A model generated the notes under the pieces. The model did not search any database. It was not told the DNA's origin and was given only the letters and a program-made list of their open reading frames with translations. Below are positions 2,933-39,378 of a stretch of DNA of 47,307 nucleotides, piece by piece. The position numbers and the translations under genes are program-made. The stretch's first letter is position 1, and the number at the start of each line of letters is the position of its first letter. The DNA comes from a bacterium (GTDB lineage Bacteria; Planctomycetota; SKW154; DAOVDS01): positions 1-47,307 of the forward strand of contig DAOVDS010000002.1 in the NCBI GenBank assembly GCA_030669415.1, written 5' to 3'.

Positions 2933-3688
2933 GTGGCGGGACATTCACACTGGGCCGGTATCAAATACAAGAAGGGCGCCGCGGATGCCAAGCGCGGCAA
3001 GCTCTTCTCGAAGCTGGCCAGCAGGATAATGCTGGCGGCGCGTGAAGGGGGCGGCGACCTGGACATGAATCTCAAGCTGCGCTACGCGGTGGAACAGGCA
3101 CGGGTCGCCAACATGCCTAAAGATAAAATCGAGCGCGCCATAAAGAAAGCCACCGGCGAGCTGCCGGGAGCCGCCCTGTCAGAAGTGATTTACGAGGGGT
3201 ACGGGCAGGGCGGGGTCGCAATTCTCGTGGAGGCACTCACCGACAACCGCAACCGAACCGTGGCGGCGCTGCGAAAGATATTCCAGACCCGCGGCGGCAA
3301 CATGGGCGCTACAGGTTGCGTTTCCTGGATGTTCACTACCAAGGGGCTTATCCACGTGGAAGACAGCAAGATAACCGAGGATAAGCTTATGGAACTCGTC
3401 CTCGATGCCGGCGCGGAAGACATCAAGCACGAAGGCTCCACCTTCGAGGTGACGGCAGAGCCGGGAGACTTCGATGCAGTCAAGCAGGCTATCGAGGCTC
3501 ACGGAATTACGCCCGCGTTCGCTCAGATAACCCGCATACCTTCAACGAACGTGCCTGTCAACGACGAGACGGCAAGAAAGGTAATATCGCTCATAAGTGC
3601 TATCGAGGACAATGACGACGTGGTAAACGTCTACGCCAACTATGACATCTCAGATGAAGTAATGACGAAGATACTCGCCGAGACATAG
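2933..3688 (+). CDS. yebC: YebC/PmpR family transcriptional/translational regulator
   Basis: AGHSHWAGIKYKKGAADAKRGKLFSKLASRIMLAAREGGGD...; GTG start. Confidence 0.95.
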   Translation: MAGHSHWAGIKYKKGAADAKRGKLFSKLASRIMLAAREGGGDLDMNLKLRYAVEQARVANMPKDKIERAIKKATGELPGAALSEVIYEGYGQGGVAILVEALTDNRNRTVAALRKIFQTRGGNMGATGCVSWMFTTKGLIHVEDSKITEDKLMELVLDAGAEDIKHEGSTFEVTAEPGDFDAVKQAIEAHGITPAFAQITRIPSTNVPVNDETARKVISLISAIEDNDDVVNVYANYDISDEVMTKILAET

Positions 3689-6448: not shown

Positions 6449-9400
6449 ATGGAGCCCAAAAAAGGCATAGACATAGCTGACTTCCCTACGATATTTCAGT
6501 CCCTCACCTCGGGCAGGCGTACGGGCAATCTGAAAGTCTCTACAGGCACCGGCTCCTTTTTCTTCTACTTCCAGGATGGTGTTATCAAGCACTTCGCCCA
6601 GCCCGCGCGCGACGACGTGCTCCTTCGCGCCATGCTGCACTGTGCCAAGATTGACCGCACCGGATATGAGAAGCTGCTCTCCCGGCACCGGCGCAGTGGC
6701 CGCTCCTATCTTTCTCTTTTTTCGGCCAAGCGCACCATCACGGACGCCGATATCACCCAGGCCATGCAATTCATGGTGCAGGAAGAAGTCTGCGACCTGT
6801 TTGTACGCTCGCGGCTCAACTGCGAGTTCTTCGAAGGCGAGCCGTTTCCTGAAGTCTTCGGCACCGAGAAAGAGCGGGTAACGCTCTCGGTATTGCCCGA
6901 GCCAGTCGTCATGGAGGCGGCACGCAGGATGGATGAAGTCAGCCTTCTTCGCGAAATTGTGCCATCCACCAGCGACGTGTACACAGTTACCGGCGTCACC
7001 GAGGAGCAGTTGGAGGCGCCTCTGCCGCCCGAAGATGCCGGCCCTCGTGAAGAGGTGCTTGACCTCATCGACGGACACCGGGACATTGAAGACCTCGCGG
7101 CACTTGCGAGAATGTCCAAGTTCGACCTGCTGCGCAGGCTCGCCCAGCTTGCCGGCGCGAGGGTCGTCGAGGCGCTTGGCGCACGCTCCCTCCTGACCCT
7201 TGCGCAGCAGTACGCCATTGAAGGAAACATACGCAAGGCTCTGAGGCTCTACGAGCGCGCGGAAGAGCTCGGCGAGGCCCGCATGGAGACCCGCATGCAT
7301 ATCGCACGCCTCTATGGCGCACTCTGCGACGAGAAGCGTGCCCTCGCCAAGTACATCTCCATATCCGAAGATGCCCTCAAGTCGAACGATACTGACGGCG
7401 CCATTACTGCGATTCGCCAGGCGCTTCACCTCGCCCCGGAGAACACAGAGGTTCGCGAGAGACTGGCCGCCCTTCTTCTGCAGAGCGACCGCTACGATGA
7501 GGCGATTAACGAGTCAATCGAACTGGCGAACCTGCTGGTCAAGGCCAAGAACCTCGACGGCGCCGTGCAGATATGGCTGTCTTTCATGGACAAGTATCCC
7601 ACCTCGACCGAATCGCACCGCCAGCTCGCGGAGCTCTACAAGGAGCGGGAGAACAGGACCGCGGCTATCCAGGTTCTGGAGAGCCTTGCCGAGCTGTATC
7701 TGACCCGCGCCCGGCGCGAGCGGGCGGTGGAAGTCTACCGCGAGGTCCTCAAGCTTGACCCCAAGCATACCGGCGTGAGACTCAAGCTGGCGTCGCTTCT
7801 CAGGCGCATAGGAAACGTGAAGGAAGCAGCCCGGGAGTACGAGAAGTTCCGCTCATCCACGCGGATGCTGCGTTTCTCGAAGCGGCCCCAGACGATTCTC
7901 AGGTCGTGGTTCGGCCTCAGACACCCCACGGTTATCGCGTCCGCACGGCTGGCACTCAGTGGGCCCGCATTGCGCGCGATAGCCATCCTTGCGCTCGGAC
8001 TGGTTCTGGCCGGCGTGCTTACGCTCATCTTCTCTGTAACAGTTGCTTCTCAAGGCAACGAGCTCGGCCCCGGGATAGGCTCTGTACTCTTTGGCGCACT
8101 GGTCATCATGCACATCGTGATGGCCATTGGCGTTCTACCGCTGCTGGCCTCGGCATCAGTGCTTCTGCACCCCCATGAAGATGACGAAAGCGTTGCAGCG
8201 CAGCTTGTAGCGCACCCGCGCGGCGCGGTGGCGGGCAAGTTCGTCGCCACACTCTCGACGTGGCTGATACTGCTGCTTGCCACGCTGCCGCTGGCTGCGA
8301 CAGTGGTGCTGCTGCGGGGCGCAAGCGGGCCGGTCGTTTCGCTCAACTTCTACCTCCAGATTCTCGTGGGCGCAGTTATCGCTGCAGCACTGACCCTGGT
8401 TTGCGCAAATGCGCCGGACAGAAAGAGCGCTATCGTTGATTCCTACCTGGTCTGCGCCGCACTGGCACTGCTGGGAGTGCTGTTCGTCAGCATGCTCTCA
8501 GACGTTGGGGGCACCGGCAGCGGGTCATTGCTGGCGAAGCCTGTCTCAATGACCGACCTGCCCGCGTTCCAGTTGCGCACATCCACGTTTGTCGGAACCG
8601 CGCTTCTGATGCCGATTGCGGCGGTGTTTGTCTGCGGTTTCATACTAATGGCTGCGGTGGCACGTCTGACGCCCGAACGCGGGTACTCCAGCCCCGCCCA
8701 GAAGCTGTTCTGGCTGATTGTCATACTCCTGGGTACGGCAATCGGCCTTGCATGGGCAAGCACGGGCGACCATGCCTCGTCGCTTTCCCAGCCGCCGGTC
8801 GCCCAACTGCTTCTCCTTATGAGCGTATTCCTGGCGCTTTCAATTGGCGCGATCGTTTTTTCCACCGAATCGGCACCCCCTGTAACCGCTGAAAATGAAA
8901 GCGTTAAAAAGCTCCTGTCGAGGTCGCGCCTGAAGCTCATGCTCGGCCCCGGGCCTTTGCGTGGCTCGCTGTTCGCGCTTGCAGGCAGTGCAATTGTGCT
9001 GTTTGTAGTGATGCTGTTCCTGGGCCTGTCGGAGAGCTCGGCAACTCCGACAAAACTGAGTGGAGGCGTGCTCACTGCAGTTTATTTCGCCATACTGGGC
9101 CATGTCACACTTGTTATTTCACTGGGACTGCTTCTCTCAACCACCCAGCTCTCCGGCAGGTGGCGCAGGCTGATTCTTATATCAGTGCTCGGTATTACGC
9201 TTGCCGGGATACCTGCAGCCATGACATACATGCAGTTTCACATACCCCGCCTGGTTGCGGATTTGAGCCCGCTCGTGCTTGCAGCCGCCGCATTCGGCAA
9301 GAGTATTACTACAGAGAAATACATATGGCGCGCTGAGGCGATAAACTGGGGCTGGGTGGTGGCTGTGTACTGGGCAGCGGCTGCAGCCATCGGGACCGCG

Positions 9401-9463: not shown

Positions 9464-9876
9464 AATACAGAAAAGAAGGCGACCACTATCTCGTAGTCTT
9501 CGACAAGGGCGATGAGCTGGTGCAATCGCTGACTGAGCTTGTCGCTGCCGAGAGCATCGAGGGTGGAATCGTTCGCGGCCTGGGTGGTGTCACGAACGTC
9601 GTCCTGGGCTTCTTTGACACTGAGAAAAAGGAGTACCTGCGCAAGGAATTCGCCGGTTTCTACGAACTTGCCAACCTGGTTGGTGACATCTCCCTGGTTG
9701 ACGGAAAACCGTTCTGCCACCTGCACGCAGTTATCTCCGACGCCGAGATGCGCGCGTTCGCAGGCCACCTGTTTGCTGCGGAGGTATCAGTGACGGGTGA
9801 GCTGATTCTAACGCCGGGCGAAAAGGCCCCGAGGCAGTTCAACGACGAAATCGGGCTCAACCTGATTGACCTCTGA
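9460..9876 (+). CDS. PPC domain (DUF296) containing protein
   Basis: ESIEGGIVRGLGGVTNVVLGFFDTEKKEY...GKPFCHLHAVISDAEMRAFAGHLF; GTGA overlap with upstream stop. Confidence 0.88.
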   Translation: MKYRKEGDHYLVVFDKGDELVQSLTELVAAESIEGGIVRGLGGVTNVVLGFFDTEKKEYLRKEFAGFYELANLVGDISLVDGKPFCHLHAVISDAEMRAFAGHLFAAEVSVTGELILTPGEKAPRQFNDEIGLNLIDL

Positions 9877-34003: not shown

Positions 34004-35665
34004 GTGGAAAACGACCCCGAGAAAATCAGCCGGGAGCGGGAGAAGTACGAGAAGGCACTCAATTCGTGCAACAGCCGCGACGAGGTCGCGTTCACCACCA
34101 CCTCGTCCGAGCCGGTTGATGTTCTCAACACGCCGGCTGACCTCGAAGGCTTCGATTACCTCAGAGACCTGGGCTTTCCCGGCGAGTACCCGTATACCCG
34201 CGGCGTTCACCCCGACATGTACAGGGGCAGACTCTGGACGATGCGGCAGTTCGCGGGTTTCGGTACTGCCACAGACACCAACAAGAGATACAAGTACCTG
34301 CTCGAACACGGCCAGACCGGGCTCTCCGTCGCGTTCGATTTCCCGACCCTGTACGGGTACGATTCCGACCACGAGCGCTCCGAGGGTGAAGTGGGGCGCT
34401 GCGGCGTGGCCATATCCAGCCCCGAAGACATGGAGACTCTCTTCGACGGCATACCGCTGGACGAGGTGTCCACCTCGATGACGATAAACGGGCCTGCCAG
34501 CGTGCTGTTCGCATTCTACATCCACGTCGCCGAGAAGCAGGGCGTCCCTCCGGAGAAGCTCCGGGGCACAATCCAGAATGACATTCTGAAGGAATACATC
34601 GCCCAGAAATCCTGGATATTCCCGCCCGAACCCTCCATGAGAATAATTACCGACATAATGGCCTTCGCCGCCGACCACGTACCACAGTGGAATACCATCT
34701 CAATAAGTGGCTACCACATCCGCGAGGCAGGTTCCACCGCCGTGCAGGAGCTCGCCTTCACTCTTGCCGACGGTTTCGCGTACGTCGAGGCGGGAATAGC
34801 CGCGGGGCTCGATGTGGACAGGTTTGCGCCCAGGCTTTCCTTCTTCTTCAACGCGCACAACGGCCTGTTTGAGGAAATCGCCAAGTACCGGGCCGCCCGG
34901 CGAATCTGGGCCCGCCGCATGAAGGAGAAATACGGCGCCAAGGACCCGCGCTCATGGCTGCTGCGGTTCCACACGCAGACTGCCGGCTGCTCGCTCACCG
35001 CACCACAGCCGGAGAACAACATAGTCCGCACCGCGCTCCAGGGTCTCGCGGCAGTGCTTGGCGGTACCCAGTCGCTTCACACAAATTCCATGGACGAGAC
35101 GTTCGCCCTGCCGACCGAAAAGGCCGCGAAGATTGCGCTGCGCACACAGCAAATCATAGCCTACGAAAGCGGGGTGCCCAACACAATCGACCCGCTTGCC
35201 GGTTCCTACTTCATCGAGAAGCTCACCAACAAGATGGAGGCGCAGGCCCAGAAGTACTTCGAGAGAATAGAGAAACTCGGCGGCGTGGTCGCGGCGATTG
35301 AAAAAGGCTTTTTCCAGCGGGATATCACCGATGCCGCCTACCGCTACCAGCGTGAGATTGAGCAGCACAAGCGCATTATCGTCGGCATTAACGACTACGT
35401 AGAGGAGGAAATGCCCGACATCGAAACGCTCAAAATCAAGCCGGAGGTGGAACCCGAGCAGCGCAGGCGACTGAAAGCCCTGCGCGAAAGACGCGACAGC
35501 GGGGCATGCAAAGAACGTATCCAAGACCTCAAGGCCGCCTGCAGCGGCACAGACAACGTAATGCCGAGAATACTCGAATGCTGCCGCGCATACTGCACGC
35601 TCGGCGAAATAGTGGAGGCAATGAAAGACGTGTTCGGCGTGTACACCGAGCCACCGATATTCTGA
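34004..35665 (+). CDS. Acyl-CoA mutase large subunit (methylmalonyl/isobutyryl-CoA mutase family; ICM-type residues)
   Basis: [44 protein letters not shown]...[27 protein letters not shown]...[11 protein letters not shown]...[17 protein letters not shown] start. Confidence 0.95.
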
Positions 35666-35686
35666 GAAAAAAACGGGAGTGTTCTT

Positions 35687-38600
35687 ATGGGTAGTGCAGA
35701 TAAAAGCCCCGATTTGGCCTTAGCGCTGCAAGAGCCTTTACAGCAGGTTGCACATAAACTTGTTTCTGCCACATCCCACCTGATGCGCAGTGCAATAACT
35801 GAAGAGGATTTGCGAATCGGATTTGAAAAAATACTGTCTCCACTTTTTCGCGCATTAGGGATTAAATCAGAACCGAGATACGAGAAAACAACTGTCCTGG
35901 GCGGCCGTTCTGATGCGCTGCACGGACAGGTGATTATTGAATACGAATCTCCAAAGGCTTTTCAATCTAAAAGCCGAATACATCATGCCTACGGTCAACT
36001 TGTCGGTTATATCCAGGGAGAAGCCAAAAACAAAAAAGAGACTCTATTCCTATTTGCTCCGAAACTTGTAGGTGTCGGGTTTGACGGCCAGCAAATCTTC
36101 TTTGTCCATTACAGAGGAAGCAAGACGAAGCCAAAAACTGAATTAGACAAAAAGGATTTTGTCCGCATCGGTCCTTATCCTTTTCACGCAGAAAGCGCCT
36201 GCACCTTTCTCACATATCTGCGCGCCCTTGACCGCCTGCCACTCACGGCAGAGCATCTTGCCGATAAGTTCGGGCCAAAAAGCGAAGTTGCCAGAGACGC
36301 CGTCTCAGCCTTTGCGGATGCACTCAAAAACTGGGGGAAAGAAAGGGTACCCGTCTTTTTCAACGAATGGAAACGACTTTTCGGCATCGTCTATGGAGAG
36401 GAATTTGGCACTCGTCAGGCACAGGAGACAAAAGCACTTTCCCGTGTCTATGGTGTAAGCAAAGACACAAACTTTCAGGAATTGCTCTTTTCGGTTCACA
36501 CCTATTTTGCGTTTCTGATGAAGCTTATCGCTGCCGAGCTTGTTACTCTTAAAGAAAGCGCTTTTACCGCCTCGTTTTCCCATCAACTTACGCATACTCT
36601 AAAGGATGAGTTGCAGACACAACTGACTGACATTGAAAACGGCGGAATATATGCCAAACGCGGCATCGCAAACTTTCTTGAAGGAGATTTTTTCCGGTGG
36701 TATCTGGACGCCTTCTCGCCGCGTCTTGAAGAAGCAATCAGGGAAATAGCCAGAGCACTTTCTGAATTCGAGCCAGCGACGACCACGATTGATCCGGAAT
36801 CTGCCCGCGACCTTCTCAAAAAACTTTATCAATATCTGGTGCCGCAAGAAGTGCGGCATAACCTCGGCGAATACTATACACCTGATTGGCTTGCCGAGTT
36901 ACTTCTGAATGAAGTCGGCTATAAAGGCAACACTCTGAAACGAGTGCTTGACCCCGCCTGTGGTTCAGGAACTTTTTTGGTTCTTACCATTCAACGGGCG
37001 AAGGAGTATGGGCTGAGCCACAAAGAGCCGCCACTTGAGACGGCAAAAAGAATTGCTGCCAATATCTGGGGTTTTGACCTCAATCCCCTGGCAGTTATCG
37101 CTGCCCGCACCAACTACCTTTTCGCGCTCGGTGATATAGCGCAGGAGTTATCTTCTTTTGAGATTCCTATCTATCTTGCTGACTCTGTCCTCTGGCCTGA
37201 AAAAGCGGGAGACAAGGAGTTAAACTTTGCTGGCGGCGAGCATATAAAGATTCAGACCTCCGGCGGGCGATTTCACGTCCCCTATATCTGGGTAGCAAAC
37301 AAAGGGTTCCTTATGCGCAAAGCCGCGCCACTTGTAGAAGAGATGACAAAACAGGGCTATTCACCTGCCGAAGCGATGGAGCGGTTCAAAAAAGAAGGAC
37401 TGGTTTTCACTCCCCACGAAAAGATTGTTCAGAACTTCTACAGCGAGATTCTGGAACTTGAGAAAGAGGGTAAGAACGGTATCTGGGCGAGATTTCTCAA
37501 AAACATCTTCGCGCCGCTGAACGCTAAAAATTTTGATTTCGTCGTCGGAAATCCTCCCTGGGTGCGGTGGGATTATCTCTCAGATGAATATCGCAAGGAA
37601 ACACTCCAGTTGTGGAAAGATTTCGGTCTCTTTTCCCTGAAAGGATTTGAGACACGACTGGGCGGCGGCAAGAAAGACTTCTCGATGCTTTTTACCTATG
37701 CCGCCTCCGACTACTACCTGAAAGATGGCGGCAAACTCGGGTTTCTTATTACGCAGGAAGTCTTCAAGTCAAAAGGCGCTGGCGAGGGATTTCGCCGCTT
37801 CAAACTTGGCAAAGAAGGTAAATCTCTTAAGGTTTTGAAGGCTCATGACTTGGCCACTGTTCAGCCCTTTGAAGGCGCAGCAAACAAGACAGCAGCAATA
37901 ATCCTCAGAAGGGGGGGGGAAACTACTTATCCTGTCCCTTATTATGTCTGGAAGAGAAAAAAAGGAGTCGGGAGAATTGCAACCGATAAGAAGTTGAAAG
38001 ATGCCCTGCCTTTCCTTCAGAAAAGAAAATTGTTCGCCCGACCAATCGGCTCAAAAGTGGGCCCGTGGCAGACTCTCGCGGCAGACCAAAAGTGGCTAAC
38101 TGCGCTTCAAGGTGAAAACTCTTACAATGCGCACTCCGGAGCCTATATTTCTCCCTACGGCGTTTTCTGGTTGAAGATAGAACAAGTCCTATCTGAAGGC
38201 GAACTTCTTGTCAGTAATCTTGTGGCAAAGGGAAAGACGAAGATTCAACAAGTAAGAGAAGTTGTTGAGCCAGAACTCGTCTACCCGGCATTGCGAGGCT
38301 CCGATATCCAAAGATGGCAGGCAAATCCCGACATTTTTGTCTTACTTGTGCAATATCCTGAGAAAAGGGAACCTTACCCTGAAAGTCAAATGAAAAAAGA
38401 GTGGCCAAGAACCTACGGCTACTTGACAAGATTTAGAGAAACCTTACTCTCACGGAAGTCAAAACCCCTGAAACAGCTCGCAGAAAGAACAGCGTTTTAT
38501 GCAGTCTTCGGCGTAGGAGATTATACAGTTGCCAACTACAAGGTTGTATGGAAACGGATGACAAACGACATAATTGCAGCAGTTGTGTCCCAATCCAAGA

Positions 38601-38947
38601 CACCGTTCGGCCATAAAATCGTCATCCCACTCGAGACTACCGCCTTGATCGCTGCGAAAAATGAATCCGAGGCGCACTACCTCTGCGCTATTGTCAATTC
38701 GACTCCCGTCCGCGAATTCATCAAATCATTCTCTTCTGCCGGGCGCGGGTTCGGCACTCCTTCGGTGATGAAATATGTCGGTATTCCACAATTCGACTCT
38801 AATAACAAACTACACCAGAAGCTCTCGAAACTATCAAAAGACCTTCACAATCATAAGGCAAAGGACGGAATCCTTGACAATATCGCTCCACTGGAAAAGG
38901 AAGTAGATTCGTCTGTTCGTAAGTTATTCGGCATAAGAGAGGCCTAA
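35687..38947 (+). CDS. Single-polypeptide type IIG-like restriction-modification enzyme (N6-adenine methyltransferase)
   Basis: Motif I VLDPACGSGTFLVLTIQRAK, motif IV FDFVVGNPPWVRW, N-terminal nuclease-like GGRSDALHGQVIIEYESPK, C-terminal recognition-domain-like region. Confidence 0.85.
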   Translation: MGSADKSPDLALALQEPLQQVAHKLVSATSHLMRSAITEEDLRIGFEKILSPLFRALGIKSEPRYEKTTVLGGRSDALHGQVIIEYESPKAFQSKSRIHHAYGQLVGYIQGEAKNKKETLFLFAPKLVGVGFDGQQIFFVHYRGSKTKPKTELDKKDFVRIGPYPFHAESACTFLTYLRALDRLPLTAEHLADKFGPKSEVARDAVSAFADALKNWGKERVPVFFNEWKRLFGIVYGEEFGTRQAQETKALSRVYGVSKDTNFQELLFSVHTYFAFLMKLIAAELVTLKESAFTASFSHQLTHTLKDELQTQLTDIENGGIYAKRGIANFLEGDFFRWYLDAFSPRLEEAIREIARALSEFEPATTTIDPESARDLLKKLYQYLVPQEVRHNLGEYYTPDWLAELLLNEVGYKGNTLKRVLDPACGSGTFLVLTIQRAKEYGLSHKEPPLETAKRIAANIWGFDLNPLAVIAARTNYLFALGDIAQELSSFEIPIYLADSVLWPEKAGDKELNFAGGEHIKIQTSGGRFHVPYIWVANKGFLMRKAAPLVEEMTKQGYSPAEAMERFKKEGLVFTPHEKIVQNFYSEILELEKEGKNGIWARFLKNIFAPLNAKNFDFVVGNPPWVRWDYLSDEYRKETLQLWKDFGLFSLKGFETRLGGGKKDFSMLFTYAASDYYLKDGGKLGFLITQEVFKSKGAGEGFRRFKLGKEGKSLKVLKAHDLATVQPFEGAANKTAAIILRRGGETTYPVPYYVWKRKKGVGRIATDKKLKDALPFLQKRKLFARPIGSKVGPWQTLAADQKWLTALQGENSYNAHSGAYISPYGVFWLKIEQVLSEGELLVSNLVAKGKTKIQQVREVVEPELVYPALRGSDIQRWQANPDIFVLLVQYPEKREPYPESQMKKEWPRTYGYLTRFRETLLSRKSKPLKQLAERTAFYAVFGVGDYTVANYKVVWKRMTNDIIAAVVSQSKTPFGHKIVIPLETTALIAAKNESEAHYLCAIVNSTPVREFIKSFSSAGRGFGTPSVMKYVGIPQFDSNNKLHQKLSKLSKDLHNHKAKDGILDNIAPLEKEVDSSVRKLFGIREA
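37911..37919 (+). repeat. Homopolymeric G9 tract in the R-M coding sequence
   Basis: AGAA-GGGGGGGGG-AAACT, translated R-R-G-G-E-T in frame. Confidence 0.9.
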
Positions 38948-38976
38948 ATTAGTCCTGACCAAGAGGGAGCAGGTCT

Positions 38977-39378
38977 ATGGCTAAGAGAATAAGAGTACTT
39001 ATCGCCAAGCCGGGGCTTGACGGCCATGACCGGGGTGCGAAGGTCGTCGCGGCCGGGCTGCGCGACGCGGGAATGGAGGTTATCTACACCGGCCTGCACC
39101 AGAGCGCGGAGGCAATCGTCGAGAGCGCCATCCAGGAAGATGTGGACGTAGTCGGGCTCTCCATGCTCTCCGGGGCGCACATGACGTTTTTCCCCAAGGT
39201 TCGCAAGCTCCTTGATGAGAAAGGCGCCAGTGACATCATGCTTATGGGCGGCGGAATCATCCCGCGGGACGACCAGAAAACGCTCATAAGGGAAGGCTAC
39301 GCAACGGCGCTCTTCGAGCCCGGTACGGTACTGGGTGCAATCGCCGAGTTCATCAAGGAAAACGTAAAGAAGGACTGA
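38977..39378 (+). CDS. Cobalamin B12-binding small subunit of acyl-CoA mutase
   Basis: [66 protein letters not shown] (DxHxxG motif). Confidence 0.95.

What the first reader, a model, noticed from the sequence alone, without database searches (positions are those of the whole stretch)
37911..37919. In-frame G9 tract predicts phase variation of the R-M enzyme
G9 sits at about residue 742 of 1086. Reading by hand, G10 leads to TAA at 37987-37989 and G8 to TGA at 37995-37997, so either one-base slippage truncates the protein after the methyltransferase motifs. PolyG tracts in type IIG/mod genes drive phase variation in Helicobacter and Campylobacter; extension to this lineage is inference.
Basis: partly seen in the sequence, partly recalled or inferred. 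Interest (0 to 1): 0.8.

Follow-up and report, generated by a model that had tools for sequence, protein, structure and literature searches.

The report
G9 run in a restriction-modification gene
A run of nine G's really does sit in a bacterial restriction enzyme gene where a one-base slip would cut the protein short, but runs like it are common in this genome, also in likely essential genes, so an evolved on/off switch is possible but not shown.

Summary
G9 lies at 37911-37919, inside a 1086-aa fused restriction-methylation enzyme (type IIG, TspDTI-like; 35687-38947). G8 stops at TGA 37995 (769 aa) and G10 at TAA 37987 (767 aa). Both lose the target-recognition domain. The model puts the tract in the turn of the last beta-hairpin of the methyltransferase.

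Phase variation is plausible by analogy: Campylobacter cj0031 also has G9 about 69% along the gene (ON=G9, OFF=G10). The evidence available here does not support it:
(1) G-run counts in the host MAG (Planctomycetota) are 134 (>=7), 33 (>=8) and 10 (>=9), a chance-like decay.
(2) In-frame G9 also occurs in signal peptidase, KdsB-like cytidylyltransferase and PTS EIIA genes.
(3) MutS and MutL are present.
(4) None of 89 homologues (28-66% identity) has a G run above 6 at this site or above 8 anywhere.

Switching is not excluded: cj0031 homologues also mostly lack the tract, and no same-species genome or raw reads were available.

The gene is a foreign single-gene insertion (GC3 0.49) between the two methylmalonyl-CoA mutase subunit genes. 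A better contingency candidate elsewhere in this genome is a G13 run just after TTGACA, upstream of a lipoprotein-like gene.

The parts
37911..37919 (+). G9 homopolymer, codons 742-745 (AGG GGG GGG GAA, R-G-G-E)
   Evidence: turn of beta-hairpin 735-742/750-757 in the model
35687..38947 (+). type IIG fused nuclease-methyltransferase-specificity gene, 1086 aa, TspDTI-like
   Evidence: PADLOC REase_MTase_IIG 1.6e-283 over residues 29-1085; Pfam N6_Mtase and Eco57I
35912..35947 (+). predicted nuclease active site D76-x8-E85-x-E87 (atypical D-EXE)
   Evidence: homologue motif table; same pattern and spacing as TspDTI D66/E75/E77 in PMC3384240
36950..36970 (+). methyltransferase motif I DPACGSG, residues 422-428
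37550..37561 (+). methyltransferase motif IV NPPW, residues 622-625
37889..37957 (+). last beta-hairpin of the methyltransferase domain (residues 735-757); its turn is encoded by the G9 tract and the codons after it
   Evidence: AlphaFold2 model, mean pLDDT 86
38054..38944 (+). approximate target-recognition (specificity) domain, residues ~790-1086, lost in G8/G10 forms
   Evidence: domain limits of TspDTI in PMC3384240 transferred by near-identical motif numbering; model
37957..37963 (+). A7 run between the tract and the out-of-frame stops; a compensating slip (G10+A6 or G8+A8) restores the frame
37987..37989 (+). TAA reached in the G10 (and G7) frame
37995..37997 (+). TGA reached in the G8 (and G11) frame
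34004..35665 (+). methylmalonyl-CoA mutase large subunit, 5' neighbour split from its partner
   Evidence: Pfam MM_CoA_mutase 4.6e-228
38977..39378 (+). mutase B12-binding small subunit, 3' neighbour; follows the large-subunit gene within about 160 bases in 16 of 29 relatives' loci fetched
   Evidence: Pfam B12-binding

Best explanation
The gene is a horizontally acquired, single-gene type IIG restriction-modification enzyme of the TspDTI subfamily, with its intact (ON) frame in the assembly. The G9 run is a lineage-specific homopolymer made by chance codon choices (AGG GGG GGG) for a tolerant beta-hairpin turn. It does not change protein length relative to most homologues. A one-base slip would remove the target-recognition domain and so should abolish cutting and methylation together, but with MutS and MutL present slips are expected to be rare. 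The tract is therefore a mutable site, not an evolved switch. Shown: tract, frames, domain placement, homologue comparison, genome base rate, repair genes. Inferred: slip rate, loss of activity, absence of selection for switching.
For: Run-length decay in the host genome is chance-like (134, 33, 10 for >=7, >=8, >=9). In-frame G9 occurs in signal peptidase, KdsB-like cytidylyltransferase and PTS EIIA genes, and G8 in phosphoglycerate kinase. MutS (domains II-V) and MutL are present. In 89 homologues covering the site the usual motif is (K/R)-(K/R)-G-x, mostly without indel, and the longest G run at the site is 6. Synonymous-codon shuffles reach G9 in 1.6%. mutS loss raised indel rates 102- to 142-fold in two Vibrio species (PMC5854121), so working repair matters.
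Against: cj0031 has nearly the same tract length and relative position and does switch, and its homologues also mostly lack the tract. Vibrio cholerae, which has mismatch repair, shows frequent poly-G frameshifts in tcpH during infection. The host genome has a G13 run placed like a promoter-spacer switch, so slippage-based variation may exist in this lineage. No read or strain data were seen.
Confidence: 0.7

Rival explanations
1. A true contingency locus: slipped-strand changes at G9 switch the enzyme ON (G9) and OFF (G8/G10), giving cells with and without restriction and methylation, as in cj0031.
For: Same length and relative position as cj0031 (PMC4889913); loss of the shared specificity domain would switch off both activities together, avoiding self-cutting; tract rare within the gene by codon shuffling (1.6%); only G/C run of 8 or more in the window; G13 promoter-like tract elsewhere in the genome.
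Against: Same-length in-frame runs in likely essential genes; chance-like run-length decay; MutS and MutL present; no homologue has it; no length variant seen.
Confidence: 0.2
2. The tract length in the assembly is wrong, or is a consensus hiding a mixture, because short-read errors rise at poly-G of 8 or more.
For: Errors in poly-G/C tracts of 8 or more reported for Illumina meningococcal genomes (PMC4235727); the genome is a fragmented 448-contig assembly.
Against: G9 gives an intact frame with no length change against most of 89 homologues, which an erroneous length would do only by chance or by a change of three bases.
Confidence: 0.05
3. The G9 and the A7 38 bases downstream act at RNA or ribosome level, giving a fixed fraction of truncated or frame-restored protein.
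For: A slip at A7 can restore frame after a slip at G9, because A7 lies before both out-of-frame stops.
Against: The G9 run is not conserved in homologues; the frame is open without any slip.
Confidence: 0.05

Closest known systems
Campylobacter jejuni Cj0031 (phase-variable type IIG enzyme, PMC4889913)
   Same: Fused type IIG enzyme; G9 in frame, ON=G9, OFF=G10; tract about 69% along the gene; most homologues lack the tract
   Different: Cj0031 has measured tract-length variants and a matching methylome change; C. jejuni lacks functional mismatch repair (PMC8355987); here no variant is known and MutS/MutL are present
TspDTI / Tth111II / TsoI subfamily of type IIG (IIC) enzymes (PMC3384240)
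   Same: Nuclease, helical, methyltransferase and specificity domains in one chain; atypical D-x8-E-x-E site; DPACGSG at 422; NPPW at about the same residue
   Different: Host is a Planctomycetota MAG, target sequence unknown, G9 tract present; a direct alignment to TspDTI itself was not run, the nearest being homologues that include a Thermus scotoductus locus (L174, 37-38%)
Phase-variable type III mod genes (phasevarions)
   Same: Repeat-tract frameshift would switch a DNA methyltransferase
   Different: Type III mod is separate from res; here one chain carries both activities

Membership tests
TspDTI subfamily of type IIG enzymes | R-helical-methyltransferase-specificity order in a ~1100-aa chain | tested here: met
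   PADLOC IIG model over residues 29-1085; model with mean pLDDT 86; structural matches to CamA, M.BseCI, MmeI, BpuSI, DrdV
TspDTI subfamily of type IIG enzymes | atypical D-EXE nuclease site | tested here: met
   D76-x8-E85-x-E87; most homologues of 56% identity or more also EYE, many more distant ones EYK
TspDTI subfamily of type IIG enzymes | DPACGSG and NPPW methyltransferase motifs | tested here: met
   residues 422-428 and 622-625
[quoted passage not shown]
   biochemical
Phase-variable (contingency) gene | in-frame repeat tract whose one-unit change truncates the protein | tested here: met
Phase-variable (contingency) gene | tract longer than expected from the genome background | tested here: not met
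   10 runs of G9 or longer, smooth decay 134/33/10, in-frame G9 in likely essential genes; 1.6% within-gene codon shuffle
Phase-variable (contingency) gene | length polymorphism between strains or within a population | not testable with these tools
   no same-species genome (only one other genome of the class is held); no reads
Phase-variable (contingency) gene | tract present in orthologues of the lineage | tested here: inconclusive
   absent in 89 homologues of 28-66% identity, but all are distant, and cj0031 homologues also mostly lack it

The most novel reading that the evidence does not exclude
A slipped-strand, poly-G phase-variable type IIG enzyme in a Planctomycetota lineage with mismatch repair genes present, in a genome that also carries a G13 promoter-spacer-like tract upstream of a lipoprotein-like gene; switching OFF could also reduce downstream mutase small-subunit expression by polarity.
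Probability: 0.15. Interest if true: 0.6.

Novelty: new member of a known kind. Interest (0 to 1): 0.3.

Why it matters
If the tract switches, poly-G control of restriction-modification would extend from the host-adapted pathogens where it is documented to Planctomycetota. If it does not, the case shows why a G9 run alone is not enough: the same genome offers same-length control tracts in likely essential genes, which makes the question directly testable from the source reads.

Tried and rejected
Searched for same-species or same-class copies to compare tract length: only one other genome of the class is held, and it has no match. Searched the remaining contigs of genomes with partial close homologues: one covers the site (L214) and has no tract; the 74% homologue's contig ends before the site and the fragment found in that genome starts after it. 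Phage records gave one distant match covering most of the query and the listed plasmid records only relatives at about 26-31% identity; neither was used for the tract. A paper search for phase variation and simple sequence repeats in Planctomycetes gave three hits; one was read for other points, none was pursued to a Planctomycetota case.

Full report
Observation. The window has one G/C homopolymer of 8 or more, G9 at 37911-37919. It lies in a 1086-codon ORF, 35687-38947. The reading frame places it at codons 742-745, AGG GGG GGG GAA, encoding R-G-G-E. Simulated lengths: G8 ends at TGA 37995-37997 after 769 aa, G10 at TAA 37987-37989 after 767 aa, G6 and G12 stay open.

The gene. The protein matches a PADLOC type IIG model over nearly its whole length (E 1.6e-283) and Pfam N6_Mtase and Eco57I. 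It carries D76-x8-E85-x-E87, DPACGSG at 422 and NPPW at 622. The paper on TspDTI gives D66/E75/E77 (atypical D-EXE), D422, D464 and NPPW626, with the methyltransferase fold at about 360-790 and the specificity domain from about 790 (PMC3384240). Pattern, spacing and numbering agree, so I file it as a TspDTI-subfamily enzyme; its own target is unknown. An AlphaFold2 model from 42 sequences (mean pLDDT 86, pTM 0.82) puts the tract in the turn between strands 735-742 and 750-757, after methyltransferase motif VIII. Foldseek finds CamA, M.BseCI, BrxX, MmeI, BpuSI and DrdV. G8 and G10 products therefore keep the nuclease and most of the methyltransferase but lose its last strand and the specificity domain. 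Loss of both activities is inferred, not shown.

Where it sits. The gene is 47% GC with GC3 0.49, against GC 0.50-0.63 and GC3 0.59-0.78 for 17 other window genes. It lies between the mutase large subunit gene (34004-35665) and its B12-binding small subunit gene (38977-39378). In 16 of 29 loci fetched from genomes of the same phylum the large-subunit gene is followed within about 160 bases by the small-subunit gene, and the junctions of seven of these were read. The one other genome of the order has the small subunit without the large one beside it. This reads as a clean insertion of one foreign gene into an operon. The phylum is Planctomycetota: a genome called 'same phylum' (G137) is identical over the compared stretch to JAHFOV010000043.1, titled Planctomycetota.

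Is the tract special? In the host genome (4.15 Mb, 448 contigs) I count 134 runs of G7 or more, 33 of G8 or more and 10 of G9 or more. The ratios 0.25 and 0.30 are what chance decay gives at this base composition. One run of G9 or more per 415 kb means about 11% of 47-kb windows and about 0.8% of 3.3-kb stretches hold one. Within this gene, synonymous-codon shuffles reach G9 in 1.6%. Other in-frame G9 runs lie in a signal peptidase S26 (L055), a KdsB-like cytidylyltransferase (L027) and a PTS EIIA gene (L030), and G8 lies in phosphoglycerate kinase. I call these likely essential from general knowledge of the families; essentiality was not tested, and EIIA is the weakest case. MutS (domains II-V) and MutL are present.

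Homologues. 89 homologues at 28-66% identity cover the site. Most keep the length exactly and a minority have insertions beside it. The usual residues are (K/R)-(K/R)-G-x-x-T-x-YPV, and the longest G run at the site is 6 (L157). The longest G run anywhere in their aligned stretches is 8 (L078). So the tract is private to this lineage at the divergence available.

For and against a switch. For: cj0031 has G9 at bp 2573 of 3732, ON at G9 and OFF at G10; here G9 starts at bp 2225 of 3261. A single chain carrying both activities can be switched off without self-damage. PhasomeIt uses G7 or more as its Campylobacter cut-off and notes that such loci may still mutate below 1e-5 (PMC6321876). Against: C. 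jejuni lacks functional mismatch repair and shows rates of 1e-4 to 1.6e-3 (PMC8355987), whereas here repair genes are present, and loss of mutS raised indels 102- to 142-fold in Vibrio (PMC5854121). Repair does not exclude switching: meningococcus and V. cholerae show poly-G variation.

Verdict. The tract and its frame consequences are confirmed. The phase-variation reading is a fair hypothesis, at about 0.2, not a prediction that the sequence supports by itself. The most likely reading, at about 0.7, is an ordinary homopolymer in an intact, horizontally acquired type IIG gene.

Side finding. The longest G run of the genome (G13, C410:7932-7944) begins two bases after a perfect TTGACA and is followed by TAGAAT at a 15-base spacing, about 150 bases upstream of a 407-aa lipoprotein-like gene with a tandem relative (no Pfam match). 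The scanner's 16-18 spacer rule does not call it, and a TTGAC-plus-G7 pattern occurs twice in the genome against one for the reversed control, so it is suggestive only. It is a better contingency candidate than the finding itself.

Noticed in passing
L062:2033-2045 (own genome C410:7932-7944): G13 run two bases after TTGACA and before TAGAAT (15-base spacing), about 150 bases upstream of a 407-aa lipoprotein-like gene with a tandem relative at 3453; looks like a promoter-spacer phase-variation tract.
   Followed up: partly
L025 (own genome C152, TTGACA at 9799, G8 at 9810-9817): TTGACA followed by a G8 run and a weak -10-like TAACAT at 17 bases, upstream of a 476-aa open frame with N-terminal membrane-like segments.
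   Followed up: partly
window 34004-39378: A single low-GC type IIG gene splits the methylmalonyl-CoA mutase large and small subunit genes, which are adjacent in many genomes of the phylum; premature stops in it could be polar on the small subunit. Two small-subunit paralogues exist elsewhere (C38, C118).
   Followed up: partly
window 35912-35947 and homologues: The nuclease site is EYE in most homologues of 56% identity or more and EYK in many more distant ones, so the D-EXE variant is common in a large clade beyond Thermus.
   Followed up: partly
L129 (MFGW01000110.1) 7911-8894: The homologue breaks into N runs and unrelated sequence within the methyltransferase; its C-terminal part lies on another contig, so the scaffold is probably misjoined.
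   Followed up: partly
L012:1501-1511 (own genome C84): C11/G11 run about 114 bases upstream of a response-regulator gene, in a low-complexity stretch.
   Followed up: partly
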